Below are positions 2,267 through 18,621 of a stretch of DNA of 18,621 bases, piece by piece. The notes below the pieces were generated by a model, which worked only from the letters and a program-made list of their open reading frames with translations, was not told the origin of the DNA and did no database searches. Source of the DNA: Dentipellis sp. KUC8613 (lineage: Eukaryota; Basidiomycota; Agaricomycetes; Russulales; Hericiaceae). Where the stretch lies: the NCBI GenBank assembly GCA_002286715.1, contig NSJX01000151.1:6370-24990 (forward strand). The letters run 5' to 3'. Positions within the stretch are counted from its first letter, which is position 1; each line of letters opens with the position of its first letter. The position numbers and the translations under genes were made by a program.

Positions 2267-4301
2267 TAGCGCGCGGGGTCTGATTCGTTTTGTAACTCGT
2301 TGTTCAACAGGCTTTTAGGGTTGAGTGGTGCGTAGTTCGCGAATGTCCCCTGGTCAAATCGGCTGATTAATTTATTTTTTAGGGTTTACATTTGATAAAT
2401 TAGCACTGTAACTGTAGTGAACCGTTTCTCGTACTTTCTACAGCATTCAGCTCGATATTGCAGCTCAAATAATGGATCGAATTATTGTGCATCCGAGCGC
2501 CGGGGCAGTTGCGTATGCCTTCCTTTCACCTCTGCTTCACTTTTTTAACAAGGACGCGTTAGCATCCAGGGTGCACCCTTCAATATCCGAATGCATGACT
2601 CCTGCACGACCCATGGACATGTGCTTTCGCTGGCAGAGGGCTAAAATTTCAGGTTGATACTCCTGCCCCCGGTGCGTTGAATGTTGTCTGCTTACACTGC
2701 CCTCAATATGACTGACTGCGGCTTCTACGAGCAAAAAAGAGCCTAAAGGACTCTGCACATGCCTGGAGGCATCCGTTGGTATCGGTTTTACCCAGAACGA
2801 GGTCAAATTAGACTTCTGGATTCATCGCTCGACCAACTCGTCAACAAGGCTGGCATGCTACTACCAGGAGACAACCCGCCATTTCCCTGCTGTAGGAACT
2901 CTAGGACAAGGTGAGTGTCTGTTGCGCTAGGTGTCACGCCGCATGCCACTGTCTGCCCCGAGCCAGGAGGCAGCATCACCTCGTAGAGGTGTACGCAAGC
3001 TTGCTAGAGCGCTGTATGGACCGAGGTCCTCACCAGCCTCGCAAGGACGACAACGCCCGCTTGAGATGAGACGACGCGATGCGCTCGGCAAGCCTCAGTA
3101 CGCCCCTTGTCTCCTTGTCAGCCCCGTTTACTACGCCGTGTTTTTGATATATTTCGCTTTCCTTTCTTCTCGCACACGCTCCGTTCCTCATGACGTTGGC
3201 CGCCACTCGTTTCCCTTTCTTTCGACTCCTTCACACTGTCTTGACGCTTACGCAGTACCATCTACAGTGCTCAGCCGATCCGTAGCTACCGAGCTATTCC
3301 AGTCCGGTTTCCCCTCTCTTCTCAGCCACTCGCCGTTGCCGTCGTACGCCAGCCTCTTGCCGCAAGCCTTGCTCAGTCCACACCGCCCCCGCTGCCGGCA
3401 CCCAGTCTCGTTTCTTATCCTCTTAGCTCTCGGTCTTCCCCTCGGGACGATCATCTCGCACCTTACCTTCAGCACGTTGTCACCTTAGATCATATATGAA
3501 ATACCAGGTATACTTCCGATTGCAATCTCAACACAACTTCAGTTGTCCCGATTGTCTGGATCGCGATATCAATGGAAGCATGTTAGCCTTGCGTCTCGAC
3601 GTCTTGACGCCTTGAAGTGTTGCGTCGCGATGTCGCGAGGTCATGCGTCCAGTCGAATGTGATCACCAATGCGATCTCTCAAGAAACGTTGATTTAATTC
3701 CGAATTTGTTCATCCTGGGCTTCCTCGTGCATTCTTTGATACAATTTAAAGTACGAACTTGACATCCATGCTGACACCCATGTAGTAGGCACTTAAAATA
3801 TATTCAACATTTCCTCACCAAACTCATGATAATCGATTTGGCTAAGAAATCAGCATGAAAACGGCATGTGATCAAAGATCACATGTCATCTTGCCCCCGG
3901 TGAGGCTCTCCGAGACCTCAATAAATTTGTTAATATTACCATTAAATTAAATACCACTCATACATAGTGTATCTGCTTCCTTGATTATTCTCAGAAGCTT
4001 GCATTTGACATTCGTATCTCCAGAGTCATAACGTTCAATCTGAACATCTCTGGCTCGGTGCGACTTCGGTTTTCCGAGTGATGCAGCCATCCAAAAATTG
4101 CAAACATTTTGCATGTGATAGATGTACTATTCATCCATATGTGTGTCAAAATTCGCTTCGATTGAATGCTATTTGAGCTGTCTGAAAAATGTATACACTT
4201 CAAAGTGAATCAATGTGGCTCAAACCGTGGGAGACCATTCCCCGAAGCAGCGAAAAAGTTGAGGACGTCGATTCTGCAAACCGTAGTGAGAATGTCGATA
4301 C
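2267..4301. other. Intergenic stretch, no gene supported
   Basis: Contains a pyrimidine-rich segment (about 3100-3470) in which a 185-codon frame opens from a GTG. Its serine/proline/leucine-rich composition follows the CT bias and is not treated as a gene. From about 3490 the sequence becomes AT-richer, with a perfect hairpin at 3865-3885. The left end of the transposon must lie near 4300 or in this stretch, but I could not place it. Confidence 0.5.
3865..3885. repeat. Perfect inverted repeat, 9-bp arms, 3-nt loop
   Basis: CATGTGATC at 3865-3873 and GATCACATG at 3877-3885, separated by AAA. It lies in AT-rich non-coding DNA about 420 bp left of the accessory gene's stop codon. It could be a protein-binding palindrome or a terminator-like hairpin. 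No function is shown. Confidence 0.7.
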
Positions 4302-7300
4302 TTAAGACTGATTCATAGATGAATCAGAACTCTCAGAAATTACTTCGCTCCAGCCTCGCTTTTTGGGTCGTTGCCCATCATCCCCCAAGACCTCCTCCCA
4401 TCTCCTCCGGGCCGGCTGTTGCCGAAATGATGTCCTAGCAGGTGCCCTCTTCGGTGATAATTCAGCAGGTTGGCCAAATCTCACATGCTTGGCCGATCCG
4501 GTGGATGTTGCCACGCCCGGTCCACTGGCGGTCCCCTCCGGCCTCCGTGTGTTCCTGAGTGCACTTTTCACAGCACTCGGATTGGTGCTTGATGAAGAGT
4601 CCGAGTTTCCTGCTCTACCCGATTGTCCAATTATCCGAAGGGGACGTTGCCCCTCTTTCCTCTGCGCCGCACCGCCCCGCCCTGTTGGAACCAGAGTTGT
4701 TAGCCATGAGCGAATGTTGTAATTCATGCAACTCACCCATTTCCCGTTCGGCCCGAGATGCGTGAGCTCCTTCGGCCCGAGGTTCATCGTGATGCTCGGG
4801 CTGTGTTGCCTCGTTGAATTCGAGACAAGATGACAAAGGCTGAACTGGAGACTGGGGGATGGAAATTCGGCTACGTGTCAGACCTCCTCCACGGGGAGAC
4901 CTGTGTTCATCCCATTGAGGGTTCTGCGAGTCCGCTTGAAGTCCCAATGCCGTGGGGGAATTTGTAGCTGGTCTTGAAGTGTCGGATACCAGTGGGGAAC
5001 CCGCAGGCGGATCTACCTCTTGAGCGGTGGCCTGTTCTTCCTCTAGAAACGTAACCTGGAGTGTCAGATCGTCTACCATTTTCGGGTATATGTCTTCTAG
5101 TAGCGCCTCAATGACATCGAATTTGTTGCCGAGGGATCTGCTCTTCAAATGTTTCAGAAAGTGGTATCCCAGATTGTCCCCGGTCCACGTTGTAAAGTTT
5201 GGGAACATATCACAAGCAGACCTATACAGGAAAAGCTCCCTATGGAGCATGGCAAACACCAGCAAGACTTGTGATACTCGCGCGCCTCCAACTGATGTAC
5301 CACCATAAGATCGCCACGGGTGGGCGGACATCCATTTTACGAGATTTTCGACGTCTTCGTCTCCCGAATAGAATAGCCTCGGAGTCCAGGGAGATCCGTA
5401 ATCCCAACTTGCCCACTCGGGATGGTATTCGGCCCGAGGAATTTCCTCCTCCCATATGTCATTCTAATTGTGGTCAGTATTGCGAATATTATATTGCAAA
5501 AGAAAGCACCTACCTCGAGGGCCTCCCACAGCGTCATGACCTCCATAAACTTTGTGCTGGAGTACACGTGCAAGAGATACCGAGCTCGCTCCAACGAATT
5601 GAGAATGACTTTGTTCGGTGCACCGGGGGTGTACCGGACGGGAATTGATGCAAACGGTGGTACTCTTTGAGTGATGTCCCACCAAATGATACTGAGTTGG
5701 ATATTAACAAATGTTGCCCATTCATTGGTGTCATCGAGGGTGAGGGCTTGTTCTGTGTCAAAGGGGTAGTATTCCCCTAACTCTCCCGGTGTTGGTGGAT
5801 CAGGAAGTGAGTCGGAAAGACATTTCAACCATATTTCTCTGCCAATCATTCCGAGGGCACGCACTGCCGACCAGACCCCGAGTGGAAAGATGTACTTGTC
5901 TTCTTCAATCCAGGGTTTTCTCTCGCACCACTCCCGCATCTCTTGGAGGCTCGTAGTATCCAACCAAAAGTCGAGTGGTAACCACGGCATATCATAGTCC
6001 CATGATATGAACTTGTATTTGTTATGTATCAAAGGGAACTTCACCTTTCGTGGTGGGAGTATCTGCTAACATATGTGAGATTCAGTTACAGATTGATCAA
6101 CTGCCGGACACACCTCCCCATGCTCCAGGGCAAGGGTTATGTCCTTGTAGATCTGGTCATTGTAGAGTTTCTGTATGAAGTCCACTCGGGCCGAGCAATC
6201 GTCTCGGCATTCTGCTGGGGAAGGAGGGGGAGTGCTGATAGGAAACACCTCATCTCGATTCACCACACGCTCGTTTCCAGGTCCCCAAAGTTGGCCAAAT
6301 ATCTCGGGATTATATTCCTGTGGAGACTTCCCTCTGATGCCTATGACTGGAGATTTTCCCTTTCCCCGTGGCCGGGTGGGTTCCACGTACTCGTCCTCGG
6401 TGCCATTACCACTGAATTGGTCTGCATGATAATCTCCGTAATCATCGGAGAATGGTACGCCCTGCGCAGATCTCCTGACCTTCCGAGGTCTGAGGTTGGG
6501 AGGAGACCGACGCCCAAGATGTTCGTCATCCTCTGTCTCATCGTCTTCGGCCCGACGTTCTCTGTTAGTTCCTGCCGGTGGGGTCCCACTCTCGGGCCGA
6601 GGTGTGTCGGGCTGATCCCCCTCGGGCTGATCAGCCTCGGGCCGATTACTGTCGGCCCGGGCACCATTCGCAGATGATTTGGCTTTTGCCAGTTTTCTTC
6701 TCTCGGCGACGGTAGCTGCTGCCCTCTGTCGCCTCACCATTGCTTCCCTTTGCAGCATGGCCGGAAGAGCAGCTACAGGAACAATGGATTTCTTATGCCA
6801 CACAGCCTTGAACTCGAGTATCGGCTTCCCTGCTTGTCGGCGTGTCTCCCAATGTGCAAGCAAGGCCGATACGTCATCGACAGTAAGGTGGGAAGGATCC
6901 TTCCATCTGAAGGTAGGCGATGCAAGATACTCTTGGTCGATAAAGTCGCCGGGAAATTCACTGAGCTTTGTCCAGGGGACTCCCCTGTTACTCTTGCTCG
7001 CAGAACCTGCAATTCACCACCTTGTCAGCCTGCCATGAATGTCCAGAATATGTTGCGTACCATATGCATGCTTCATTACATCCCTGACCAAGTCCTGCTT
7101 CGTGTCTCCGTCCCATTTCGGGTCATAAGTCGCATATACCGGCCGTCCATTGGTGTCACTTTCCACGATAACACGCATGTGGCCTGCCTTAGTTTTCGGT
7201 GGTGGCGGTGGTTCTACTAGATTGTGAACTCATGCATCCGGGCAATTGAAAGAAAACATACCGTCAAACGACTTGACATATGCGTCAAATGCCTCATGCA

Positions 7301-8097
7301 TCTTCATGTCCCGCCAGTTGGGTAGAGTCCTCTTGAACCCTCGCCCCCCCACCTCATCCATATAGTCAAATCTGGAAGGAGGATCAGCGACTCTTATCGC
7401 TAGGAGGTGCATGGGACACACAGGTATTGAACTCTTTCCCCTTTCTCATTCACCCAGGTAGACATCATGACGACTGACATTCCCAACATGCTGTGCATTC
7501 GGCCTGTAAAACCTCGCATGTGTTTCCATGCATACTTCTGTGCGAGACTATGCGAGCCATCAGGAGAATGAAAGCAGGTTGAGAGGACTAGAATGGCGTA
7601 CGCCTGCTGTATCTTGGGTGGGACGCCTTGCTCTTGCCACGCTTTTGCTGTCGCCTCAAACATTTCATATTCTTCGTGAGTCAGTTTCTTCTCCACTTTT
7701 GTAACCGCATCCTGATAATAATCGATGGCCGGCTTCTCCCTCTCCGAGTCGACTTCATTCTTTTTAAAGTAGGCAATTACGTCGTGCACGCTATAGTTCC
7801 GTGTCCATCTCTTGAAGTCCTTGGGGTTCCGTTCTCGGCCGTTGTCATAGAGATACTGCTTCGTAACCTGAGGAAAATGAGCAAGGTAATAATTTATCCA
7901 CGTAGCGTATTCACTGGCACCTTTTTCCAATACGTGTCCTCCTCATCGGGGTAGGGGAATTCAGTCCTGAACTCGTTTTGAATCTCCTCTACGACTTTGG
8001 CCTTGTCGGCACTTGAGGCCCGTCGAAATCGGTCAATGACCTCCTCCAACCAGGCTTCCTCCAGAATGTCGAGAGGTCGCTCCGAAGGGTCTGGCAT
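4302..8097 (-). CDS. Transposon accessory protein of unknown function, 1145 aa, eight exons
   Basis: Exons on the minus strand: 8097-7921, 7867-7422, 7371-7262, 7216-7061, 7006-6114, 6062-5514, 5463-4737, 4681-4302. All seven introns are 45-55 nt, GT-AG, and the exons sum to exactly 1146 codons with no internal stop. I chose ATG 8097 (MPDPSERP); an in-frame ATG at 8181 would add 28 residues. Residues about 20-210 are a charged, mostly helical domain (WTRNYSVHDVIAYFKK; LTHEEYEMFEATAKAW) resembling, from memory, uncharacterised repeated proteins of Agaricomycetes. Residues about 410-490 are a disordered acidic/proline linker followed by a basic cluster (RPRKVRR), a possible nuclear signal. Residues about 595-880 are a tryptophan-rich globular region (SWDYDMPWLPLDFW). 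The C-terminus is low-complexity and basic (PKKRGW). The gene diverges from the dioxygenase. I know no function; a DNA-binding or regulatory role is inference from position only. Confidence 0.85.
4308..4327. repeat. Perfect inverted repeat at the 3' end of the accessory gene
   Basis: CTGATTCAT (4308-4316) and ATGAATCAG (4319-4327) with a 2-nt spacer, inside the last codons (MNQS-stop) of the accessory gene. It could be fortuitous, or an end-proximal structure of the element. Confidence 0.6.
6547..6660. repeat. Motif cluster inside a coding exon of the accessory gene
   Basis: Three exact copies (6547, 6592, 6637) and three variants (6607, 6622, 6652) lie within 114 bp. On the minus strand they are translated as the repetitive linker with RAD, NRPEAD, QPEGD and PRPES-like units. 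The linker's sequence therefore appears to be dictated by the DNA motif. Confidence 0.85.
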
Positions 8098-8620
8098 ATG
8101 CACGGCAGGGGGGATACAATGAGGGAGGGATATCCGTGCAGGTGTGGACCTCGAACATCCCCCATCTCCAAGGGCTCTCATCTGGTCACATGACTCTCAA
8201 CCGGGCCATCAGTGCGGACAAATCTACTTCCCTATTACCCCTTTCGGAGCATACCCTCTGGCCGCCGCTCCCGAGTGTCGTCTGTCGCATGGACCATTGA
8301 CACAAGAACATGCCAGGTTGCAAGAAGAGACGTTCCTCAAACATGGTTGCATCAGATGCCGTTCACCGAAGCCTACCCTTCCGCTCTCCTGCAAAGGCAG
8401 TTGAGAAATCCGAGGCCATGGCGTAATCAGTCGGGCCGGCTTGATGACTTCGGCCCGGGCCGAGCCCAATCAGACGCAATATTGTCATCAGGGACATCAA
8501 GATCTATGTCAGATGTCATCTTAACCCTGCGTTAGGTGCAGGAATGCATACTGCAAGGCTGACCATGCAGCACTGCTAAATGTGTGTGCAACGCGGCGGA
8601 AATGCGCCTTCTGAACAGTC
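8098..8620. promoter_or_regulatory. Divergent promoter between accessory gene and TET/JBP gene
   Basis: This 523-bp non-coding gap separates two genes that point away from each other, so it must hold both promoters unless an untranslated first exon lies elsewhere. It contains a motif variant at 8431 and the palindrome at 8450-8463. I see no clear TATA box. If the accessory gene starts at 8181, the gap shrinks to about 440 bp. Confidence 0.6.
8450..8463. promoter_or_regulatory. 14-bp perfect palindrome made of two overlapping motif copies
   Basis: TCGGCCCGGGCCGA is self-complementary and consists of one forward and one reverse copy of the 9-bp motif (each with one mismatch) sharing their centre. 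Its position in the divergent promoter makes it a candidate operator through which an element-encoded protein could control both genes. Confidence 0.65.
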
Positions 8621-9915
8621 ATGTCCACTGCCCATTCCCCTTCGCCCGTCCCTATGGACGAACATATCTCTGCATACATGTTCTCTACATTCCATGACCG
8701 TATTCGAGCAATGAAGGACAAGAAGGAGCCTGAATGGACGCCTTGCGCATCCGGTGCAGTCATCTCGGCCGAGCTTCGCTGCGAGTTGGACTACATAACG
8801 TCGGTCCTGGCACAAGCATTCTACACGCTGAGTGAGTGTTTCTGTGCTACCTCTGATCGTGCTGACCACTTCTGCAGTCTACGTTACCTGGGAAGCGAAG
8901 CACTACGAAGAGAAGGTGCCAAGGAAAGGAGCAGTCAACCCGACGAAGGAGGCCGAGTTGGCATCGCAGTTTCCGCCCTGTTCCCCCTCGGAGATGCTGT
9001 ACGTCGGTGAGGCGAGGACAGTTGTGGATCGAAGTGGTCATATCATAGCTTGGGTGTTGCCTAGATTGCTTGACGAAGAAAGACAGGTGAGTCTTCGCAA
9101 TGGGGGTGCACCGACATGGTATCTAATCGAATACAGAAGAAGATGATTGAGGCCACGAAATCTATGCCTGGCCTACTTCACAAAGGAAGGACGGCATCGG
9201 GAATTGACCAAGTCAGACACGCCGCGCAACTCTTTGTCGGAGAGGAGGAGAATCCTCAGATCACACTGGGCGTTGTAAACTTGTCACCCAGGTGGTATCA
9301 ACGAGGTCACGACGTGCGTACCACAACACTGCAATCGGTGCATAGATTATCTAATGAGTCTACCAGACGGCGGAAGATGTTCTTGCTATCTCGTCGAGCC
9401 TGCGCACTGCCGAAGGGCGTGAATGGCTTCGCAAGATTCACGAGACCAACGCCATCATTAGTGGCATCCTACGCATCATTCACCCGGAGTTGTACCAGGC
9501 AGGACGTGTTGTGAGAGAACGCGTCAAGGCACAAATCTCGGACCCAGCTGTTATAGAAGAATGGGCTTCTGTCTTCAACGGTGTGTCGGTCATTTCCAAT
9601 CGGGAGACCCTGCCACATCGCGATTACAATTCGCGGGCCGAGTGGTATGACATCCTCGCCTCTGTGGGAACATATGAGGAGCTCTCTCTTCATCTCCCCG
9701 GTCTCGGCCTGGCAGTCGACTACAGCCCTGGAACCGTGGTCGCTCTCCTGGGGAAGCTGCTCCTCCATAGCATTCCTCGATGCACCCCCGACCGAGTGTG
9801 TTACGTGTGGTGGTTTCGAGAGAATATCCATAGAAATCTCATGGTTAACCTTCCTGGAATGGCAGTCAGACAGAAGATGATTGCCAGTGGATATGATGGG
9901 AACATGTACATATAG
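8621..9915 (+). CDS. TET/JBP-family 2-oxoglutarate/Fe(II) DNA dioxygenase, 381 aa
   Basis: Exons 8621-8831, 8878-9086, 9137-9313 and 9367-9915 join in frame (382 codons including stop); introns are 46, 50 and 53 nt with GTGAGT or GTGCGT donors. The family oxidises 5-methylcytosine (TET) or thymine (JBP) in DNA using Fe(II), O2 and 2-oxoglutarate. The C-terminal half shows the double-stranded beta-helix signature: HRD (H283, D285) for iron in LPHRDYNS, a distal iron histidine in LLLHSIP (H333), and an arginine (R342, in PDRVCYVWWF) suited to bind 2-oxoglutarate. Residues 284-300 (RDYNSRAEWYD...SVG) match the usual fungal pattern. There is no extra chromatin-reader domain. The length is in the range of compact fungal members. 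The frame is intact, so it may be active. Its place beside a KDZ transposase supports the assignment. Which base it oxidises cannot be read from the sequence. Confidence 0.92.
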
Positions 9916-10042
9916 TGCTATCCTGCATACTAGACTGTTGCTATGTTGTCACGTGACCGAGAGCTCAGACTTGCATCGCCTAGTGGCACGATGCCCAAGC
10001 TAGGGCGCCTATCGCGCCTCCTTCCCCTCAGTGTTTGCAAGC
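9916..10042 (+). promoter_or_regulatory. Short gap with E-box palindrome upstream of the transposase
   Basis: Only 127 bp separate the dioxygenase stop from the transposase ATG. GTCACGTGAC at 9948-9957 is a perfect 10-bp palindrome around CACGTG, the core bound by fungal bHLH factors such as the Cbf1/Pho4 class. A pyrimidine-rich CTCCTTCCCCTCAG tract precedes the ATG. A role in transcription is inferred from position. Confidence 0.4.
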
Positions 10043-13000
10043 ATGGCAGAACAACTTGACAAAATGAACCTCATATACTCCACATTCACTAAGCATGGAA
10101 CGCGCTCGCGTAGGGTAGACAAGGCGGTAAAGCGGAGCTTCAAGAGGGATGCACCTAGTGACAGTCAGTCGGGATCGTCCAAGAGAATGAGGCTTGAAGT
10201 CCTAGAGGAGCAGACAGGCGTTGAGGATGTGAGGGAGAAGGGTTCCGAGCCACTTCTTATTCCTCGGGGAAAGGTGAGTTCAGAGGTATCGTATTCGTCT
10301 TGCAGTGTTCTAACCTTAGTAGACGGATAGAGACAATCTGATCGACTATCTGGCGAACCGTGAGGAATGCCTTGATCACATTCTCGAGCGCGAGGCTCCG
10401 CAGTCGTGTTGCTCAACAGCTGAATGTCAAGGAGACTCTCGCTGGCGGTGCGAGAGCTGTTTCGGCTGGCCAATGTACTGCGACAACTGTGCAAGGGAGG
10501 CCCATCACTATCACCCCTTCCACCGAATGAAACTCTGGACAGGAACACATTTCCGGCCAGCATGGTTGTCGGAACTCGGGGTATGTGTTCATCTCGGCCA
10601 TCAGGGCCGTCGGTGTCCACAGAAAGAAGTGCAGAACTTCACGCAGACGGTGTTGAGGCCGAACGCTCGGAAAGGCAATCATGGCAAGGTCTGACTTGGT
10701 CTTTCGTCAATATGTCTAGTGACCAAAGTCGTGACACCGGTGAAGAAGACTGGGAGGATGTTGCGGAGCAAGAGCAAGAAGACGGGCTGGGAAAGGAACC
10801 AGAAGAAATGAGGACCGACTTCAGTCACAAGGGCCGGAGGCGCATGGTCTTGGTGGATACCTCAGGAATCCATGATTTGTATGTTGAGGTCTGCGAGTGC
10901 CCTGATAGTCAGTCCATCCACGCACAACTGATGATGGCTGGCCTCTTCCCTGCTACACTTCGGGATCCGAGGACAGCTTTCACATTCTCTGTGCTTGATG
11001 ATTACCGCCTTGAGAATTTGCAATGCAAGACCTCCGCGTACCACTACTACGGCAAGCTCCGCCGCATCACAAATCCAGCTTTTCCGGGGTCTGTGAAGGT
11101 GAGAGGCATTTCATCCTGAGATGCAAGAACTGAACAAACATCAAAGGATCGTTACCGGGAGTTATTGAGGGTCTCCAGACAATGGCGCGATCTGAAGACC
11201 CGAAAATGGCACGGGTTCGGACACACCGACGTTTCCCCTAAGCCGGGGGAGCTGGCGACATTTTGCCCGGTGTGTTCCCAGCCAGGCATCAACACGCCTG
11301 CAAACTGGAAGGATCATCCGTAAGCCTACATGTCGCGGTACCTAGATAATGGCTGAACCATGGCATCAGAGAGCGTCACATTCGGGTCACCATGCTCGAC
11401 AGCAATATGAAACAAGTCCAGCTGTACATGCATCGGCCCGAATTGGATGTGCAAGTCAGCTCGGGACTGGGCTTTATGGTTATGCCTGAGTGGTATGAGG
11501 AGCATTTGAAGCATTCCAAGGAGCCCCGACAAGTATGTGCACATGGTAATAGACATCATGTTGGAACTCAAATTCTTCCAGAGGTCTACTTGTAATGCCC
11601 ATCGGGCGGTGGACAAACGCAATGTGAAGCGAAAGAACCTCAGGGTCACTGGAATTGGGACCGCCGCGTGCATGCATGGCTGTTTTCTGCCTCATGCAAC
11701 AGTGGACTTCTACGGAGGGGAGCAGTAAGTATATCTCTTCCTATCAGTAAGCGCATGCTCAGGTTCTTCACTAGGCAACGCATGATGGATGTCTGCTTGG
11801 TTTACTCCCTCCAATACAATTCTGAGGGCATACCGATAATGATGATCATCTACGACATCATGTGTCAATACGGCATTCACTTTGTTGCACGCGTGCACTC
11901 GTACAAGCTATTGAACCTGCCGGCAAATGTGGAAATACGGAAGGGCATTGGCCTTTTCCACATTCACGGTCACGTTGACGAGTGCTTTGCACGGTATACC
12001 CCTTCCTTTCTCCCAGGCAGCGGAGAAGTCGACGGAGAGATTGTGGAGACACTCTGGCCGCCACTCAATGCCATTGCACGGAGCACCGAGGGAATGAGCA
12101 TCTCAAGCCGCCAGGAGACAATTGATGAACATATGAACGACTCAAACTATAAGAAGTTTGTTGGAATGGGTGAGTCGGTCTTCCCTTCTATCTACATCTA
12201 TCGGCCCGAGATGCTTCGGGTCGGGTAAATCAACTCGGCCCGAATGCCCTCGGGCCGACCTGACCTCGTCAGTTGTGGCCCTCAAGCGTCGCCATCGGGC
12301 TTCCGTCGCTGGCCTGGCTACCGCAGACACCGTCTACCGCCAGTTCTGCGAAAGTGCATCTACAGAGCAGCTGAGACAATGGAAAAAGGCTGAGGTCAAT
12401 GCACAGACCGGTCGCCAACGGACGCCTTCGGCAATGGATGTGTATGATGTCAAAACGAAGAAGGCTGATGGAAAGGCGGTAGTGCAGAAAAATTTGGTGG
12501 AGAAGGAACAAGGCGACGGGGTTGTCCGCGGTACTACATCGTGGCTGAGCCAGGGCCTGAAACTGCAGGAGCAACAGTGAGTCGTGCAACCATTCGGCCC
12601 GAATAAGTACTGACAGCCTTCGGAGACTTCAACTTGCAGCTCATGCTTGCAAGCTTGGCATCCGCTTAACTGCCAGTGATGCCAACAAGCTAGAGGACAA
12701 ATGACGCCTGCTTCAGGGTCGTATCGACATGTACGAGACACAGGCACCTGACTACATTCCACGGGTTGCAGTGGACCCCCAGGGCCCTGGGGCTATCGAT
12801 GAAGTGATCGAGCAGGAGGAGCTCAATGACACTTCCTGGGATGACCTTGATAATCTCGACCCAATAGCACCTCCCCGGACCACACTGCGGCAGGCCGCAG
12901 TCCCTCCCGAACGACTCGCAATCACACTTCCATCGACCATCAGCCCGAAAGTATGGCAGGAAAAGAAGTGGGATGCGTTGAGACAAAGGGAAATCAAGCT

Positions 13001-13754
13001 TCGCGAAGGACAAATCAATGACCATTTGCACGAGTTGCGAATGGCGTTAGCCCAGAAATCGTGCATCTTCCGACTTCATGTCCGACCCAGTAAGAGTCAA
13101 GCCACAATGACAAGGGCCTGGAATGCAGTGAAATCCGTCGACAGTCTGGTGCAGCAGCATGCACGGGCATACAGCGTTGCTAGGCAGGCCTTGGTAGCTT
13201 TGAAGGCCCCGCAAGAGCTGCTCACCAGATACCAAGTCTTGAAGAAAGAGCATCTACAGGTGAAGACGTTCACTATTGACCCGAAGGTCATCGGCCAGCG
13301 CAACACGAATCTACCATGGTTTTGGCAGCTCGGGGTAGGTGAAACCGGTGAAGCAAACACGTATATGAATGACTGTAAGTCGAGTTCGCGATATTACAGT
13401 AACAGCACCTGACGGAGGTTATCCCGTTCAGTCTACAGGGTTCAATGGCTTCGAGCGAAGGCACGACGGGATAGATGGCTGGAGGAGCATGTTCGGGTGC
13501 TTACGGAGATGAACGCATTTGTACTCTACTGTGAGTATCATGCCGGAGCTTGGGATGCGTGAAGGGAGAAGAGCGAATCTGCCCAGAAGAGAGGGCATGC
13601 AGTGTATGCAGCGAGGAGGGTTGCTTTGTGGAGGGAGATGGGAGAGCAGGCATTGGACACATTCAAGGCCATTCTGTCGGCCCGAGAAGCAGATGTCGCG
13701 TTTCGGGGAGGTGACCCGGTTCCATACCCTGATGTTTATGCTTCGAGACAATAG
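10043..13754 (+). pseudogene. KDZ transposase with N-terminal CxC2 zinc-binding domain; two in-frame stops
   Basis: Exons: 10043-10273, 10323-11098 (one unresolved frame change within about 10600-10760), 11147-11319, 11370-11532, 11582-11724, 11775-12169, 12273-12576, 12617-13374, 13432-13754. The start is the ATG of MAEQLDKM. A basic, nuclear-signal-like N-terminus is followed by the CxC2 cysteine cluster (CCSTAEC, CESC, CDNC, then AHHYHPFH and WTGTHFRPAWL; about 10410-10620). The KDZ catalytic core follows: D in MLDSNMK (codon 11398), D in YDIMCQYG (codon 11854) and E in DGEIVETLW (12031-12048), with VTGIGTAACMHG and the HIHGHVDEC segment between. The helical C-terminus (LREGQINDHLHELRMAL; RGQRN-like GQRNTNLPWFWQL; WLRAKARRDRWLEEH) is well conserved. 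TGA at 12702-12704 and 13560-13562 interrupt otherwise conserved coding sequence. Splicing around either stop would break the frame. The catalytic core precedes both stops. Family assignment is firm; loss of function is likely, not proven. Confidence 0.9.
12170..12272 (+). other. Enlarged 103-nt transposase intron holding three motif copies
   Basis: GTGAGT donor at 12170 and GTCAG acceptor ending 12272; exon phases match (G|TT). It is about twice the length of the other introns, and the extra length holds exact motif copies at 12201, 12235 and 12250 plus a degenerate one near 12216. The next intron (12577-12616, 40 nt) holds another at 12594. Confidence 0.8.
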
Positions 13755-13760
13755 ACCTTG

Positions 13761-13918
13761 TCGGCCCGAATTGTCTTGTCGGGCCGAATGTCGTCCACCA
13801 TTGCGTTCGAGTACATTCATTCGGCTCGAGCCATCTATCGGGCCGAATATCGATGCACAGGCTTTCGAGGGTACTTTACTCGGGCCGATACGATTCAAAA
13901 CAAATGTATTCGGGCCGA
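13761..13918. repeat. Right-end motif cluster after the transposase stop
   Basis: Five exact copies (13761, 13779, 13838, 13880, 13910) and one variant (13821) fall within 158 bp, starting 7 bp past the stop codon. After the first copy the exact ones are all in reverse orientation. Subterminal clusters of short repeats are the usual form of transposase-binding regions. No equally dense cluster is present at the left end, where 4748 and 4772 are the outermost copies. Confidence 0.8.
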
Positions 13919-14029
13919 AACGCGACAACTACGACAGCGAGTGCTCATGTTGAAGAGATAGCCAAAAAAAAAAATGACAAAAAGCAAGAAAATGTATGTT
14001 TACGCGGGCGCCATCCGTTGCACGCGACT

Positions 14030-14332
14030 CTAATTCCCCTGCAACTTCGCCGTCGCGGCCTCGATCGTGCGCGCAAGGTGGTGGTAGGCGTCCGCCATCT
14101 CCTGGTAGATGTCGCCAACGCGATCGAGTTCGGCCGGACTGAGGCCAGGCCCTGTGAAGACGGGCGACGGGGCCTGCGGGGCTCGCTGCCCAGCGGATTG
14201 CGTGGGTTGCGCGACGATGGCAGTAGCACGGCTGCCATCGGGTGTGCGAGCTGTGACAGAACTGCGTTAGTTGTACCCGTTGTTGGCCCTACTAGTGAGG
14301 AGTGGGCCGGCAAGCGGCAGGTTCTGATTCAT
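14030..14332 (-). CDS. Possible small protein, 86 aa, two exons
   Basis: ATG at 14332 begins MNQNLPLAGPLLT. A 42-nt intron (14292-14251; GTAGGG donor, CTAAC branch, CACAG acceptor) joins it in frame to RTPDGSRATAIV, and the frame ends at TAG 14030-14032. The second half is a plausible amphipathic helix (LSPAELDRVGDIYQEM; HHLARTIEAATAKLQ). The first exon is duplicated 561 bp upstream, so an alternative longer transcript is possible. The intron is shorter than most others in the window, and no family is recognised. It could be a fragment of a repeated gene or element lying beside the transposon. Confidence 0.35.
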
Positions 14333-14333
14333 C
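14291..14333. repeat. 43-bp direct repeat, copy 1
   Basis: Begins ACTAGTGAGGAGTGGGCC and ends CTGATTCATC. It matches 14852-14894 with a single mismatch (T at 14322 against C in copy 2). On the minus strand it contains the start codon and first exon of the possible small gene. Confidence 0.9.
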
Positions 14334-14851
14334 TTGTGTTGTCACTGTCCAAAATCAAATTCGTATAAACCTGAACAGATAGCTTTATTCCTTATCATGA
14401 TAAAATTAGATTTCACTTCATTTGATTTGACATGACTGAACTGAATCAACTCCTATGTGACCTTTGCTGAATTTCCTGAATTCACCTGCTTTGATGTGAG
14501 TGATACTACAAACATTATGTACAGCACTGAATCAAATTCAATAGATTTGCAAAATTCAGGTATGTTGAGTTATTCTGTAGCTAGACTTGTATGTTTTGCA
14601 GTGTTATGCATGATATACATAGTTCTTGCATGAAATAGTCATTTGGCTTTCTGAATAATTCAATGAACAAGCATTTTATCAAGTAGTGGATAAGGCTGCC
14701 AGTTAAAATATAGATTGAGCCAGATGGCTGTTATGAGATATGATGTGTTGCTATATTGCTGAAAGTCCTCCCTACATTCTACAGACCATGTGCTCTATAT
14801 ATACATCTTAGCAACCCCAGCTACCATACATAATATCTAACTGAAGTAATG

Positions 14852-14894
14852 ACTAGTGAGGAGTGGGCCGGCAAGCGGCAGGTCCTGATTCATC
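14852..14894. repeat. 43-bp direct repeat, copy 2
   Basis: A GC-rich island inside AT-rich DNA, one base different from 14291-14333. On the minus strand it reads MNQDLPLAGPLLTS, then SerHis and a stop soon after. Its ACTAGT end could also serve as a donor to the same downstream exon. Confidence 0.9.
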
Positions 14895-15020
14895 CATGAA
14901 TTTGGCTATACTGTCCTCTTGAACTCTTACACAGTTTATATATTCATTGGACAGATGTATTTTTGGCCATTTTTACTGACCATGTTTTTCTAATAGGACT
15001 TGCACTGAACTTTGATTTAG

Positions 15021-15044
15021 TTGAATGGATTACAATCCATTCAA
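15021..15044. repeat. Near-continuous inverted repeat, 11-bp arms
   Basis: TTGAATGGATT (15021-15031) and AATCCATTCAA (15034-15044) with a 2-nt centre, in the AT-rich segment. It could form a cruciform or be a binding palindrome. Confidence 0.7.
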
Positions 15045-15359
15045 GTGATATATATACCTTATACCAACTTCAGATTGGGTAAAAACTATTTCTTTTGAGA
15101 GACATAGCATAACATGACATGTATATACTATACTACATACAGGGCATGCAGCATGGATAAACATTCATCAAAGTACAACTTGATATAATGAGAGACAAGT
15201 CAAACAAACTCACCAGTGAGAGAGGAAAAAGCAGTAGCTAGAGACCAAAAGAGATGACATTCAGTCTATAGGTTGATAAATGTCCAAGTGAACTCACAAT
15301 ATGAATGTAGAAAGAGAACATTGACTGGCTGCAAGCAAGGTCGGGAGCACGAGACTACA

Positions 15360-17470
15360 ATGCGTGGGCATGTGTGTGGCTGGGGCGACGGACACCGAAA
15401 CGACAGTGCGAAGGCAGCACGACGAGCAACGACGGCGCAATGACGGCGCGCGGCGAGCGACAATGACGTGATGACACATGGCGGCACGAGGGCGCGAGGA
15501 TGCGAGGACGCATGACGACGGCGCGCGACGTGTAGCGGCGGTGAAAGACGGGGGCGGTGGCGGGATGACGAGCGGTGAGAAGGCGCATGGAGCGGCGAGA
15601 CGGCGCATGGGGCAGTGAGGGTGCGCAGCGCGCAAGCCGTGCCGTTGCTAGGGCATGCAGAACAATGGCACATGGGCACGAAGCAGCTGCATGCAGACCC
15701 GGAACAGCTGCGACGGGCCGGCGAGGGCGAGGGCGAGGGCACGCACGACGGCAAGCGAGAGGATGTGGGATGTGGCAGCGCGGGGACGCAAGGCGGCGGT
15801 GCGAGAACATGCGAGGGCAGCGCAGGGCTACGCGAAAGGGCACCACCAGGCACAATCCAGCGGTGCGGGGCATGAGATGGCGGCATTGAGGTGGCGGCGT
15901 GGGGGTTGCGTGGCGGCGACGTGGTGGAACGAGAAAGCACCCTTGAAGGGTGAGACGGCAGTGTGGGCACATGGTGGCAGCGTGAGCGCCTGCGAGGGTG
16001 GTGCGGAGCTACAAGCCGCAAGACAGCGCCGCCAGGCATGACGCGGCGGTGGAGGGGTGCGAGATGGCGCCGTTGGAGTGCGTGACGGAGGCGTGGGTGC
16101 TCGTTACGGCGGGGCGGCGCTGCGCGAGACGGCGGGTGGCGAGGCGCAGACGGCAGGGGGCGAGGCGCGGCGTCCGTGGGGCGCGAAGACGGTGGAGCGG
16201 GGCGTGCAGACGGTGGAACGGGGCATGCAGACGGAGGGATGGGGCACGAGACGGCCCACGGGGCGCAAGGCGGCCCAATGGTGTGAAAAGGGCGGGGCGG
16301 GGCGCAAAGACGGGGCGGCGTGGCGCCAGAGGTCGTCGCTAGGGCGTGGGGAGGCGTCACTAGGGCGCAGGGTGGCGTTACTGACGGCGTCGCTGAGGCG
16401 TGACACGGCGTCGGTGGGGTGTGGGGTGGCTGAGAGGGCGTTGGTGGGGCAGGCGGCTCCCGGCATCGCTACGGCACGAGACGGCGCTGCTAAGGCGCGA
16501 GGCGGCGTCGATGCGGCACGAGACGGCACCAGAAGGGCGGGGCCGGCTACGCAGGGGCGCACGGCGGCACTGCGGGGCGCCAGAGCCAGGCTGCGCGCGA
16601 GACGCTGTTGCTAGGGCGCTAGGGTGCGTCGCTAGGGCACAGGGCGCCGTCGCTAGGACGCCTGGCAATGTCGGTGGGGCGCCAGATGGGCGCGTGATGC
16701 AGGGCGGGGCCCATGATGGCAGGGGCGTGTGGCGAGGGCGAGGAGCAGCGTCAATGGGGCGCAAGGCGATGTTGCTAGGGCGCGAGGCGGCGGCGCATGA
16801 CGGCGGAGAGGAGCAACAAAACGGCGGCGCGTGGTCGCGGTGCGAGGGCCTCTGCCGGCGCGTGAGAGCGGCGAGCGAGGTTGACTGGCGGCATCGCGAG
16901 AAAACCTGGCAGAAGCGCAAGGGCCGGCGACGGCGCGCAAAGATGCCCCTGGGGCATGACGGCGGCGCTGGGGTGCGTAACGGCGAGGTTGGGGTGCGTG
17001 GCGGTGGGGCGGGGGCGCGAGACAGCGCCAGTGGGATGCGTGATGGCAGCATGAGCGCGCATGAGCAAGACGGCGGCGCGCGCGCGCGTGGCGGCGGAGC
17101 TGCGTGGCGCCACCAGCCACGAAATGACGCAGCTGGGGCGAGGGAGACGGAGACGCAGGAGGCGCGCAAGCCCCGCAGAGGCGCGTGGCGGTGGCGCAAG
17201 AGGATGCGAGGGCGACGCAGGGCCACGGGCCACGAGACGGCGCCGCTGGAGCGCGCGAGGGCGGCACAAGACCGTTGATGGCGACCCGAGGGCGTGCGAG
17301 GGCGACGAGGCAGTGCCACGACGCGAGAGAGTGCATGACGGCGCAGCAGGCGGCGCGGCGGTGTTCGAGAGGGGTCGGTGGGGCACATGGCACCATGAGG
17401 AAGAGGGGGGCAAAGCGGTGTGACGAGCGGCGACACAGCGCTATGGGAAGTGAGAGGGCGGAGACGTGAG
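15360..17470. repeat. Degenerate 21-bp minisatellite in GC-rich low-complexity DNA
   Basis: Clear in-phase 21-bp units: 16192-16212 and 16213-16233; 16335-16355 and 16356-16376; 16389-16409 and 16410-16430; 16486-16506 and 16507-16527; and five in a row from 16967 to 17071. Unit landmarks are GTCGCTAGGGCGC at the start and GAGACGGC or GCAGACG at the end. Elsewhere the same words (GACGGCG, GGGCGC, CTAGGGCGC) recur with altered spacing. Since 21 is seven codons, all frames show heptapeptide repeats and few stops, which produces frames of up to 427 codons on both strands. None has ordinary protein composition, so none is called. Confidence 0.75.
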
Positions 17471-17689
17471 CTACTTAAAAGAAAGTGAAAACGGAAGCTG
17501 CGCACCTGATGTTCCCCATCAGCGCGAAACGGGAGAGGCGGTGCGACGAGAGCTGGGTGAGAGGTGGTACTGATGCGGGACTGGCATCCATGGGTCCGAT
17601 AGGCGCAGCGTGCGCGACGCGCACGATGGGCGAGACATGCACGATGAGCAGGATGGCTCACACGACGCAGGTAGGCGCGAACCCGGGAT

Positions 17690-17815
17690 ACCGGGCTCGC
17701 GTGGTTAGTACTTCAATGACATCCTTGAGGATGTAAATACACACCTGTAGACCACTGCTACTGTCCCTCATTATCCTACCTCCTGTCTTCCCTTTTTTGT
17801 TGAGCCGACGAGCGT
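17690..17815. other. Lower-GC island inside the minisatellite region
   Basis: The repetitive GC-rich sequence is interrupted by ordinary-looking DNA with two small hairpins: CCCGG/CCGGG with a 4-nt loop at about 17683-17696 and ACATCC/GGATGT with loop TTGA at about 17719-17734. The minus strand has a GGGTTCG word like a tRNA B-box, but no cloverleaf can be drawn. A remnant of a Pol III-derived or other small mobile element is possible. Confidence 0.35.
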
Positions 17816-17829
17816 GTGTGATGGCAGGC

Positions 17830-18621
17830 GATCGGGGGATGGGAGATGGGAGATACGGCACGCGCAGAAGATGGGATGACGCGCGAGACGGCCTACGTGG
17901 CGCGAAGATGGCTCAGCACGGCGTTGAGAGCGCACGGCATGGCGCGAAGAGCATTACGGGGTGTCGATGTTGAGACGGCGGCTGGGCGCGGTGGAATGCG
18001 AGACGGCGAGGTGCCGTCGCGTGTGACGTCGGCGGGGCGCAAGGCGCCGTCGCGAGGCCGCGAGGCTCTTCGGTGGGGCCGAAGACGACGGCAGGGGCGA
18101 AGACGGCGCGGCTAGGGGGAAGACGGCGCGGCGGGGCCGAAGACGACTGCGAGGGGCGGCGGAGGGCGGAGAGGGCGCGGAGGGGGCGAAGATGGCGACG
18201 GGGGGCGAAGGGCGGCGGTTGGACGAGCGAGGGCGGTGAGGGCGGCGGTTGGACAAGCGAGGGCGGTGAGGGCGGCTGTGGACAAGCGAGGGCGGCAGTG
18301 GGACACGGAGGAGGCGGCGGTGGGCGAGCCAGGACGGCGGTGGAGGGTGCAGAAGGCCGGCGGAAGGGGCGGCGGACGGCGGCGGACGGCGAAGGGTGGC
18401 GGAAAGGGCGGCGGAAAGGGCCGCAGAGCGCGGTGGAGGGCGCGGGGAGGTGGCGTCAAGGGTGTCGAGGGCGCGAGAAGGCGGCGTAGAGGGCAGCGTG
18501 TTGACGACGTGTACGGCAGGCGGAGGGCTCGAGGAGGGCGCGAAGGGCGTGTCGAGAGCGCGGACCGGGCAGCTGGAGGCCGCGGACGCCGCAAAGACGG
18601 CGCGTGCAGCGCGTCGACGGC
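17830..18621. repeat. G-rich low-complexity DNA with short tandem repeats
   Basis: Dominated by GGGCGG, GAAGACGGCG and GGCGGCGGAC words. Strand bias is strong, with G far above C on the plus strand. Long frames on both strands (Gly/Arg-rich on plus, Pro/Ser/Arg-rich on minus) follow the composition and are not genes. It runs off the right edge. Confidence 0.65.
18211..18300. repeat. 30-bp tandem repeat, about three copies
   Basis: Units 18211-18240 and 18241-18270 differ at one base (GGACGAGCGA against GGACAAGCGA). A third, more diverged unit follows (18271 to about 18300). It is distinct from the 21-bp array to the left. Confidence 0.85.

What the first reader, a model, noticed from the sequence alone, without database searches (positions are those of the whole stretch)
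4748..13918. Eighteen exact copies of a 9-bp CpG-flanked motif confined to the transposon
TCGGCCCGA or its complement occurs 18 times in 9.2 kb and was not found in the other half of the window. It appears in both orientations across exons, introns and flanks, so codon bias does not account for it. It may be the recognition site of the transposase CxC2 domain or of a partner. Each copy carries two CpGs, which links it to cytosine methylation and to the dioxygenase the element encodes.
Basis: partly seen in the sequence, partly recalled or inferred. Interest (0 to 1): 0.85.

Follow-up and report, generated by a model that had tools for sequence, protein, structure and literature searches.

The report
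Transposon-specific palindrome array in a fungus
A large mushroom transposon that carries its own DNA-demethylating enzyme is studded with dozens of copies of one short palindrome, and a second family of such transposons carries a different one, which suggests that each family tags its own DNA so that a protein can find it, possibly to undo silencing.

Summary
In detail: 18 exact TCGGCCCGA in window 4748-13918, 0.27 expected, none elsewhere in the window. The 9-mer is a palindrome, TCGG-S-CCGA, so "both orientations" carries no information. Genome-wide it is at background (241; reversed control 227), but close pairs occur almost only in this KDZ+TET element and its relatives on C171 and C156 (control 0). 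A fuller copy (C171) has 33; the element's ends carry another array, TCCGGCCGGA. A second KDZ+TET family has a different array, CCGCGGSCAT, whose close pairs occur nowhere else in the genome. A Ty3 retrotransposon has TCGG-W-CCGA: one centre base separates the families. In the window the flanks are unrelated, so copies did not spread by duplication. Best reading: operator-like arrays bound by a dimeric protein, most likely for self-targeting (TET recruitment, anti-silencing), as plant VANC proteins do; the binder is unidentified. Against: a third KDZ+TET family (C84/C1) shows no convincing array, Ty3 has one without TET, and excess conservation is not significant against a matched control. The TET-transposon survey read here reports no arrays.

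The parts
4329..14289 (.). Segment of a KDZ+TET DNA transposon; truncated copy of the longer element on C171 (6426-16417)
   Evidence: blastn 93.8% over 6389 and 97.4% over 3586 columns to C171
4748..4780 (.). TCGGSCCGA copies at 4748 and 4772, in an open frame that continues the minus-strand gene
   Evidence: both conserved in C171
5429..5437 (.). TCGGSCCGA copy, exon of minus-strand gene
6186..6194 (.). TCGGSCCGA copy, exon of minus-strand gene
6547..6660 (.). Copies at 6547, 6592, 6637 and near-copies at 6607, 6622, 6652 (15-bp steps from 6592) in a repetitive, low-complexity part of the minus-strand gene; centre base of 6547 is swapped C/G in C171
11433..11441 (.). TCGGSCCGA copy in KDZ transposase coding sequence (own reading of the frame)
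12201..12258 (.). Three copies (12201, 12235, 12250) in a probable intron (GTGAGT...CAG) of the transposase gene
   Evidence: intron inferred from frame and splice signals
12594..12602 (.). Copy in a probable short intron of the transposase gene
   Evidence: intron inferred
13677..13685 (.). Copy in the last coding stretch of the transposase (own reading)
13761..13918 (.). Densest cluster: five copies (13761, 13779, 13838, 13880, 13910) and TCGGCTCGA at 13821, after the probable transposase stop (3'UTR, own reading)
4618..8419 (-). Unnamed multi-exon gene; the two homologues found are from Dentipellis; no Pfam or PDB match of note; candidate specificity factor
9164..9912 (+). TET/JBP dioxygenase (HxD and distal H present, own reading of the translation)
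   Evidence: PF12851 1.1e-17; 94.6% over 186 residues to DENSPDRAFT_788575
10817..11074 (+). CxC2 cysteine cluster at the transposase N-terminus
   Evidence: PF18803 1.3e-25
11579..12147 (+). KDZ transposase domain, two matched stretches
   Evidence: PF18758

Best explanation
TCGGSCCGA is the binding site of a sequence-specific, probably dimeric DNA-binding protein (two CGG half-sites facing each other, one base apart), and the element has accumulated dozens of such sites as an address label for itself. Most likely the bound protein is encoded by the element (candidates: the minus-strand gene, or the CxC2 part of the transposase) and brings the element's TET dioxygenase or other anti-silencing activity to its own copies, as VANC proteins do on Arabidopsis VANDALs. 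Shown: the array, its confinement to this element family, a different array in a second KDZ+TET family, unrelated flanks, CpG decay. Inferred: protein binding, dimer, which protein, TET recruitment.
For: 18 copies vs 0.27 expected; close pairs at 17 places genome-wide, 16 in C46/C171/C156 and 1 in C126, reversed control 0; 31-61 bp pairs 9 of 9 in C46/C171, control 0. Dyad CGG-N1-CCG 23 vs 1.9 (C46), 48 vs 6.2 (C171), while single CGG counts there are within 9% of expectation. Centre is S in 62 of 62 sites counted in C46, C171 and C156 (many shared by descent), but W in 9 of 12 in Ty3 element C126; at two sites the centre differs between copies and is C/G swapped. Flanks of the 18: 0 of 153 pairs reach 55% identity. 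Exact sites outnumber one-mismatch sites: 18 to 10 (C46), 33 to 20 (C171), 11 to 7 (C156); one-mismatch count of the reversed control 2, 4, 4. Second KDZ+TET family: CCGCGGSCAT pairs at 15 places, all on C116/C151 near KDZ and TET, control 0. Separate array TCCGGCCGGA at the ends. CpGs decay: 194 of 709 CpGs changed vs 266 of 8519 other columns; DNA methylase domain matches in the host. The minus-strand exon has only two weak matches in C24 (35% and 26%, E 4e-4 and 9e-4), while C24's TET exon is 57% identical over 185 residues and its two longest KDZ stretches 62% and 57%, so it may be the faster-changing part.
Against: No binding, methylation or expression data. KDZ+TET family C84/C1 shows no convincing array in about 6 kb each, C24 only a weaker ACCGAG enrichment. 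A Ty3 family carries an array without TET, so arrays are not tied to TET. The eight KDZ loci without TET were read only over about 3.3-3.9 kb, where even C46's own array is borderline. Motif CpGs are kept more often than other CpGs (43 of 50 vs 592 of 880, p=0.005), but not significantly against spacing-matched CpG pairs (18 of 24 vs 31 of 57, p=0.13). Other open stretches of the C46 and C24 loci are 29-69% identical, so fast change of the minus-strand gene is a lead, not a result. No DNA-binding domain was recognised in it; both structure models are of very low confidence. Elements of other fungal species could not be searched as DNA here.
Confidence: 0.42

Rival explanations
1. The sites are bound by the element's own transposase (CxC2) for transposition: an extended set of subterminal repeats, as in CACTA/Spm elements.
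For: CACTA elements carry family-specific subterminal repeats for a TNPA-like protein, divergent between subfamilies (PMC2613891 passages). Besides the KDZ and TET domains, CxC2 (and a weak CxC1 match to the same stretch) is all that Pfam recognised in six frames of C171 3050-20000.
Against: The ends carry a different array, TCCGGCCGGA, whose pairs were found only there; TCGGSCCGA spreads over 16 kb of C171 and through exons and probable introns, unlike a subterminal repeat.
Confidence: 0.2
2. A host DNA-binding protein (for example a Zn2Cys6 transcription factor, whose typical sites are paired CGG triplets) is exploited for transcription, nuclear positioning or insulation; different TE families use different arrangements.
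For: Enriched dyads differ by arrangement: CGG-N1-CCG in C46/C171/C156/C126, CCG-N0-CGG in C116/C151. Zn2Cys6 proteins typically bind inverted, direct or everted CGG pairs (PMC5559640 passage). No Zn2Cys6 domain was seen in C171 3050-20000 (a domain split by introns could be missed). A Ty3 element without TET has such an array.
Against: Such a host factor would be expected to have clustered sites at host genes too; the clustered S-centre and CCGCGGSCAT sites were found only on TE-bearing contigs, and single TCGGCCCGA is at background. Many sites sit in exons, probable introns and 3'UTR rather than promoters.
Confidence: 0.27
3. Neutral origin: slippage, gene conversion or compositional bias.
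For: One 15-bp tandem patch (6591-6660) holds several copies; some flank similarity in C171 (6 of 528 pairs) and C156 (3 of 55).
Against: Shuffles keep dinucleotides and give 0.27; single CGG counts within 9% of expectation in C46 and C171; flanks of the window's sites unrelated; centre strictly S here and mostly W in Ty3.
Confidence: 0.04

Closest known systems
VANC/VANDAL sequence-specific anti-silencing (Arabidopsis; PMC5735166)
   Same: Short, about 9-bp motif at high density in one TE family; related families have different motifs; rapidly evolving companion protein; an unrelated element (AT9TSD1) shares a family's motif, as Ty3 and C24 share ACCGAG here.
   Different: VANC21 motifs are non-palindromic, arrayed in one orientation, in non-coding DNA and often in tandem repeats; here the motif is a palindrome, mostly dispersed, also in exons, and the element brings a TET enzyme. 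No VANC-type domain was found.
CACTA/Spm subterminal repeats bound by TNPA-like proteins (PMC2613891)
   Same: Family-specific repeated short motifs in both orientations; GC-rich portions suggested to be open to methylation.
   Different: Confined to the subterminal few hundred bases there; here interior-wide, with a separate motif at the ends.
TET+ Kyakuja/Zisupton transposons of Agaricomycetes (PMC12730594)
   Same: KDZ transposase next to a TET/JBP dioxygenase; Kyakuja ones are reported from Russulales too.
   Different: The paper, as far as read, describes termini, TSDs and genes but no motif arrays, and speculates that Agaricomycete TETs act without target specificity. Whether this element is Kyakuja or Zisupton was not settled.
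Sites of Gal4-type Zn2Cys6 proteins
   Same: Paired CGG triplets, inverted or everted.
   Different: Arrays lie in TEs; no Zn2Cys6 domain found in the element.

Membership tests
KDZ+TET (Kyakuja/Zisupton-type) DNA transposon | KDZ transposase domain with CxC cluster | tested here: met
   PF18758, PF18803
KDZ+TET (Kyakuja/Zisupton-type) DNA transposon | TET/JBP dioxygenase inside the same element | tested here: met
   PF12851, also between the same homologous segments on C171
KDZ+TET (Kyakuja/Zisupton-type) DNA transposon | Defined termini (Kyakuja CA..TG, no TIR) and 7- or 8-bp target site duplication | tested here: inconclusive
   An 83-bp, 83% inverted match joins the C156 left and C171 right sides; exact ends and TSD not fixed; the window copy lacks both ends
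VANC-like sequence-specific anti-silencing system | Short motif dense only in the element family | tested here: met
VANC-like sequence-specific anti-silencing system | Related families carry different motifs | tested here: inconclusive
   CCGCGGSCAT in C116/C151, weaker ACCGAG in C24; no convincing one in C84/C1
VANC-like sequence-specific anti-silencing system | Motifs in non-coding DNA, often tandem repeats | tested here: not met
   Dispersed, about half in exons by own reading, unrelated flanks
VANC-like sequence-specific anti-silencing system | Element-encoded protein binds the motif and causes methylation loss | not testable with these tools
   needs binding and methylation assays
VANC-like sequence-specific anti-silencing system | VANC-type domains (DUF1985, DUF287) | tested here: not met
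   No such domain in Pfam scans of ten window ORFs, C171 3050-20000 or the minus-strand homologues
CACTA-type subterminal repeat | Confined to the ends | tested here: not met
   TCGGSCCGA is interior-wide; TCCGGCCGGA fits this instead
Zn2Cys6-bound site | Paired CGG triplets in fixed arrangement | tested here: met
   binding itself not tested

The most novel reading that the evidence does not exclude
Fungal KDZ+TET transposons carry family-specific palindrome arrays that direct their own TET dioxygenase to themselves: an independently evolved sequence-specific anti-silencing system outside plants, with a demethylating enzyme as effector, a fast-changing specificity protein, and a Ty3 retrotransposon that mimics the label of another family (ACCGAG shared with C24) to share the benefit.
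Probability: 0.28. Interest if true: 0.9.

Novelty: new variant of a known kind. Interest (0 to 1): 0.7.

Why it matters
How transposon-borne TET enzymes of fungi find their targets is open; a 2025 survey speculates that the Agaricomycete ones act without target specificity (PMC12730594). Family-specific arrays give a concrete alternative with defined sequences to test. If true, sequence-specific anti-silencing evolved at least twice, and pairs of protein and palindrome could serve as tools for targeted demethylation.

Tried and rejected
GAGGGCGGC in C84 looked like a third array but lies in GC-rich low-complexity sequence beyond the part shared with C1; rejected. CTTCACC in C1 exceeds its null slightly (8 vs 0.6, z 9.3, largest null 8.4) but not in its 98% sister C84; not taken as an array. 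TGCCGAAGTCAC in C24 is one local tandem repeat; rejected. CCATAGCA in the AT-rich C26 locus is mostly a local repeat; not used. Excess conservation of the motif: positive against all CpGs, not significant against spacing-matched pairs; not claimed. Within-motif substitutions 6 of 180 vs 450 of 9750 outside (C46-C171) and 3 of 45 vs 253 of 1980 (C171-C156): lower, but few events. Association of arrays with TET: 4 of 7 TET+ loci have a clear array (C24 a weaker one, C84 and C1 none), 0 of 8 TET- loci do; by families the numbers are too small, and the TET- loci were read over shorter stretches; not claimed. Structure models of CxC2 (pLDDT 44.5) and the minus-strand homologue (34.8) are uninformative; no fold search was run. 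No PDB match for the latter; in Pfam only two chance-level matches (E 0.23) for one of its two members.
Full report
What is in the window. Window 4329-14289 is a segment of a KDZ+TET DNA transposon: a minus-strand gene without known domains (about 4618-8419), a TET/JBP dioxygenase (PF12851, about 9164-9912) and a transposase with a CxC2 cluster and KDZ domain (10817-12147; probable end near 13754, own reading). The genome is probably a Dentipellis (Russulales), close to or identical with Dentipellis sp. KUC8613: one stretch of 168 residues of that strain's DENSPDRAFT_789032 matches C24's TET locus at 100%, and three stretches (59, 35, 21 residues) of DENSPDRAFT_855171 match C171 at 100%, but DENSPDRAFT_788575 matches C171 at 97.3% over 186. 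The naming is an inference; the genome itself is unnamed.

The observation. TCGGCCCGA occurs 18 times, all in 4748-13918, against 0.27 expected from 200 dinucleotide-preserving shuffles. It is the most frequent 9-mer of window 4001-14600. Occurrence on both strands is therefore automatic.

Genome-wide. The exact 9-mer has 241 hits in 34.1 Mb, against 227 for the reversed pattern, so it is not common host vocabulary. Pairs TCGGSCCGA N0-30 TCGGSCCGA occur at 17 places: 5 in the window's element, 9 on C171, 2 on C156, 1 on C126; reversed control 0. Pairs 31-61 bases apart occur at 9 places, 5 in the window's element and 4 on C171; control 0.

Sister copies. C171 is a fuller copy (93.8% over 6.4 kb, 97.4% over 3.6 kb). 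In the 18.4 kb of it that could be read it has 33 sites; C156, a partial left part (86.9% to C171 over 2.0 kb), has 11. An 83-base inverted match between the C156 left and the C171 right side marks the probable ends. Adding the C156 left part to the rest of C171 suggests about 18 kb for a whole element (inference). The window copy lacks both ends and stops at a 43-bp repeat.

A second motif at the ends. Both end regions carry TCCGGCCGGA(T). Pairs of CCGGCCGGA 22-52 bases apart are found 6 times genome-wide, 4 on C156 and 2 on C171 (matches on both strands of a near-palindrome, some overlapping), control 1. So the element has an end array and a different interior array.

Other elements. One search gives KDZ matches at 15 places, 7 of them with TET nearby. 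In the C116/C151 pair, pairs of CCGCGGSCAT occur at 15 places, 7 on C116 and 8 on C151, and nowhere else; control 0. After masking of repeats CCGCGG remains 13 vs 1.4 (C116) and 9 vs 1.1 (C151), both above the largest null. C24 shows ACCGAG 18 times against 3.1 (z 8.4, largest null 7.5). C84 shows none that survives masking; C1 has CTTCACC 8 against 0.6 (z 9.3, largest null 8.4), not seen in its 98% sister C84 and not taken as an array. In none of the eight loci without TET does a word exceed the largest null, but these were read over only 3.3-3.9 kb each, and C46's own array is borderline in such a stretch. C26 comes nearest (CCGAGG 6 against 0.8, ACTATGA 8 against 0.6). The contrast TET+ versus TET- is therefore suggestive only.

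A retrotransposon with the other centre base. C126 is a Ty3-type element (reverse transcriptase, integrase, chromodomain). It has 12 TCGGNCCGA, of which 9 have A or T in the centre. TCGGWCCGA pairs occur at 42 places on 17 contigs (control 0); all 17 contigs also carry GACCGAGR pairs (68 matches genome-wide, control 30), so they are taken to be one family, though domains were checked only on C126. The KDZ+TET element has S at 62 of 62 sites (many shared by descent). The single centre base separates the two families. Ty3's most enriched 6-mer, ACCGAG, equals C24's, which parallels a report that an unrelated element shares a VANC6 motif.

Geometry. In the array-bearing elements other than C24 the most enriched feature is a pair of CGG triplets at a fixed arrangement: CGG-N1-CCG 23 vs 1.9 (C46), 48 vs 6.2 (C171), 15 vs 1.5 (C156), 16 vs 1.8 (C126); CCG-N0-CGG 13 vs 1.2 (C116), 9 vs 1.1 (C151). 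Single triplets are within 11% of expectation in C46, C171, C116 and C151, and 16-21% above it in C156 and C126; C156 also has other enriched arrangements, such as direct N1 21 vs 3.3. This is what a dimeric DNA-binding protein would select; Zn2Cys6 proteins typically read such pairs (PMC5559640, passages seen). No Zn2Cys6 domain was found in C171 3050-20000; a host protein or an unrecognised element domain remains possible.

How the copies arose. 15-base flanks of the 18 sites are unrelated: 0 of 153 pairs reach 55% identity, mean 0.321 against 0.296 for random sites. Exceptions: a 15-bp tandem patch at 6591-6660 with near-copies, 6 of 528 pairs in C171 and 3 of 55 in C156. Sites lie in exons (read as RAE, RPE or SAR), probable introns and, densest, after the probable transposase stop; by my reading 9 of 18 are in exons, 4 in introns, 5 in the 3'UTR. 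Of the 7 left-hand sites 5 fall within stretches aligned to an annotated Dentipellis protein.

Methylation. Between C46 and C171, 194 of 709 CpGs differ, 135 of them as TG or CA, against 266 of 8519 other columns (a CpG counts two columns). This points to methylation and deamination of the element. All 7 CpG changes inside motif sites across the two comparisons (C46-C171, C171-C156) are TG or CA. At two sites the centre base differs between copies and is C/G swapped. Motif CpGs are kept more often than others (43 of 50 vs 592 of 880, p=0.005), but not significantly more than CpG pairs with the same spacing (18 of 24 vs 31 of 57, p=0.13); the second family gives 18 of 24 vs 242 of 454 (p=0.056), while its non-CpG motif columns changed at least as often as others (10 of 75 vs 366 of 5171). 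Selection on the sites is thus supported mainly by their number, fidelity and unrelated flanks, not by this test. The host has DNA methylase domain matches (5 stretches).

Candidate binder. Its exon 5337-6041 has only two weak matches in C24 (35% and 26%), while C24's TET exon is 57% and its two longest KDZ stretches 62% and 57%; other open stretches of the two loci range from 29 to 69%. Fast change, as in VANC proteins, is therefore a lead only; CxC2 is the alternative.

Mechanism and rivals. I favour a self-addressing array bound by an element-encoded protein for anti-silencing (0.42). A host dimeric factor (0.27) and transposase binding (0.20) are serious rivals. The separate end array argues against the last; the Ty3 array without TET argues for the host factor or for mimicry.

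Known work. PMC12730594 (parts 1-5 of 7 read, plus a term search of the whole main text, in which 'subterminal' and 'binding site' do not occur) describes TET+ Kyakuja and Zisupton elements and speculates on non-specific action; no arrays were seen in it. PMC5735166: abstract and sections 8-11 read. PMC10398659: abstract. PMC2613891 and PMC5559640: passages. Searches listed no paper whose title or shown abstract start reports such arrays in fungal transposons; most subscription journals are not held, so this is not proof of novelty.

Noticed in passing
window 14291-14333, 14852-14894; also C156 near 71354: A 43-bp repeat (97.7% between the two window copies) abuts the truncation point of the element in the window and in C156, beside a CpG-depleted stretch (14290-15300, CpG o/e 0.15).
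   Followed up: partly
window 4317-4330 and 14321-14334: A perfect 14-bp inverted repeat brackets the element segment.
   Followed up: no
window 15300-18621: GC-rich (about 66-73% from 15.5 kb on), purine-skewed low-complexity sequence with long overlapping open frames on both strands.
   Followed up: no
C126, locus L028 1551-6925: ACCGAGR sites run through the genes of a Ty3-type retrotransposon, and the TCGGWCCGA sites are densest between pol and an LTR-like repeat, like the KDZ 3'UTR cluster.
   Followed up: partly
C26 KDZ locus (L046, L047): AT-rich (GC 0.35) KDZ copy with TpG+CpA o/e 1.68, related to C24, no TET found: looks hypermutated.
   Followed up: no
C171 versus window 4329-10705 and 10710-14289: The left part of the two copies is 6% diverged, the right part 2.6%, which suggests recombination or uneven decay.
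   Followed up: no
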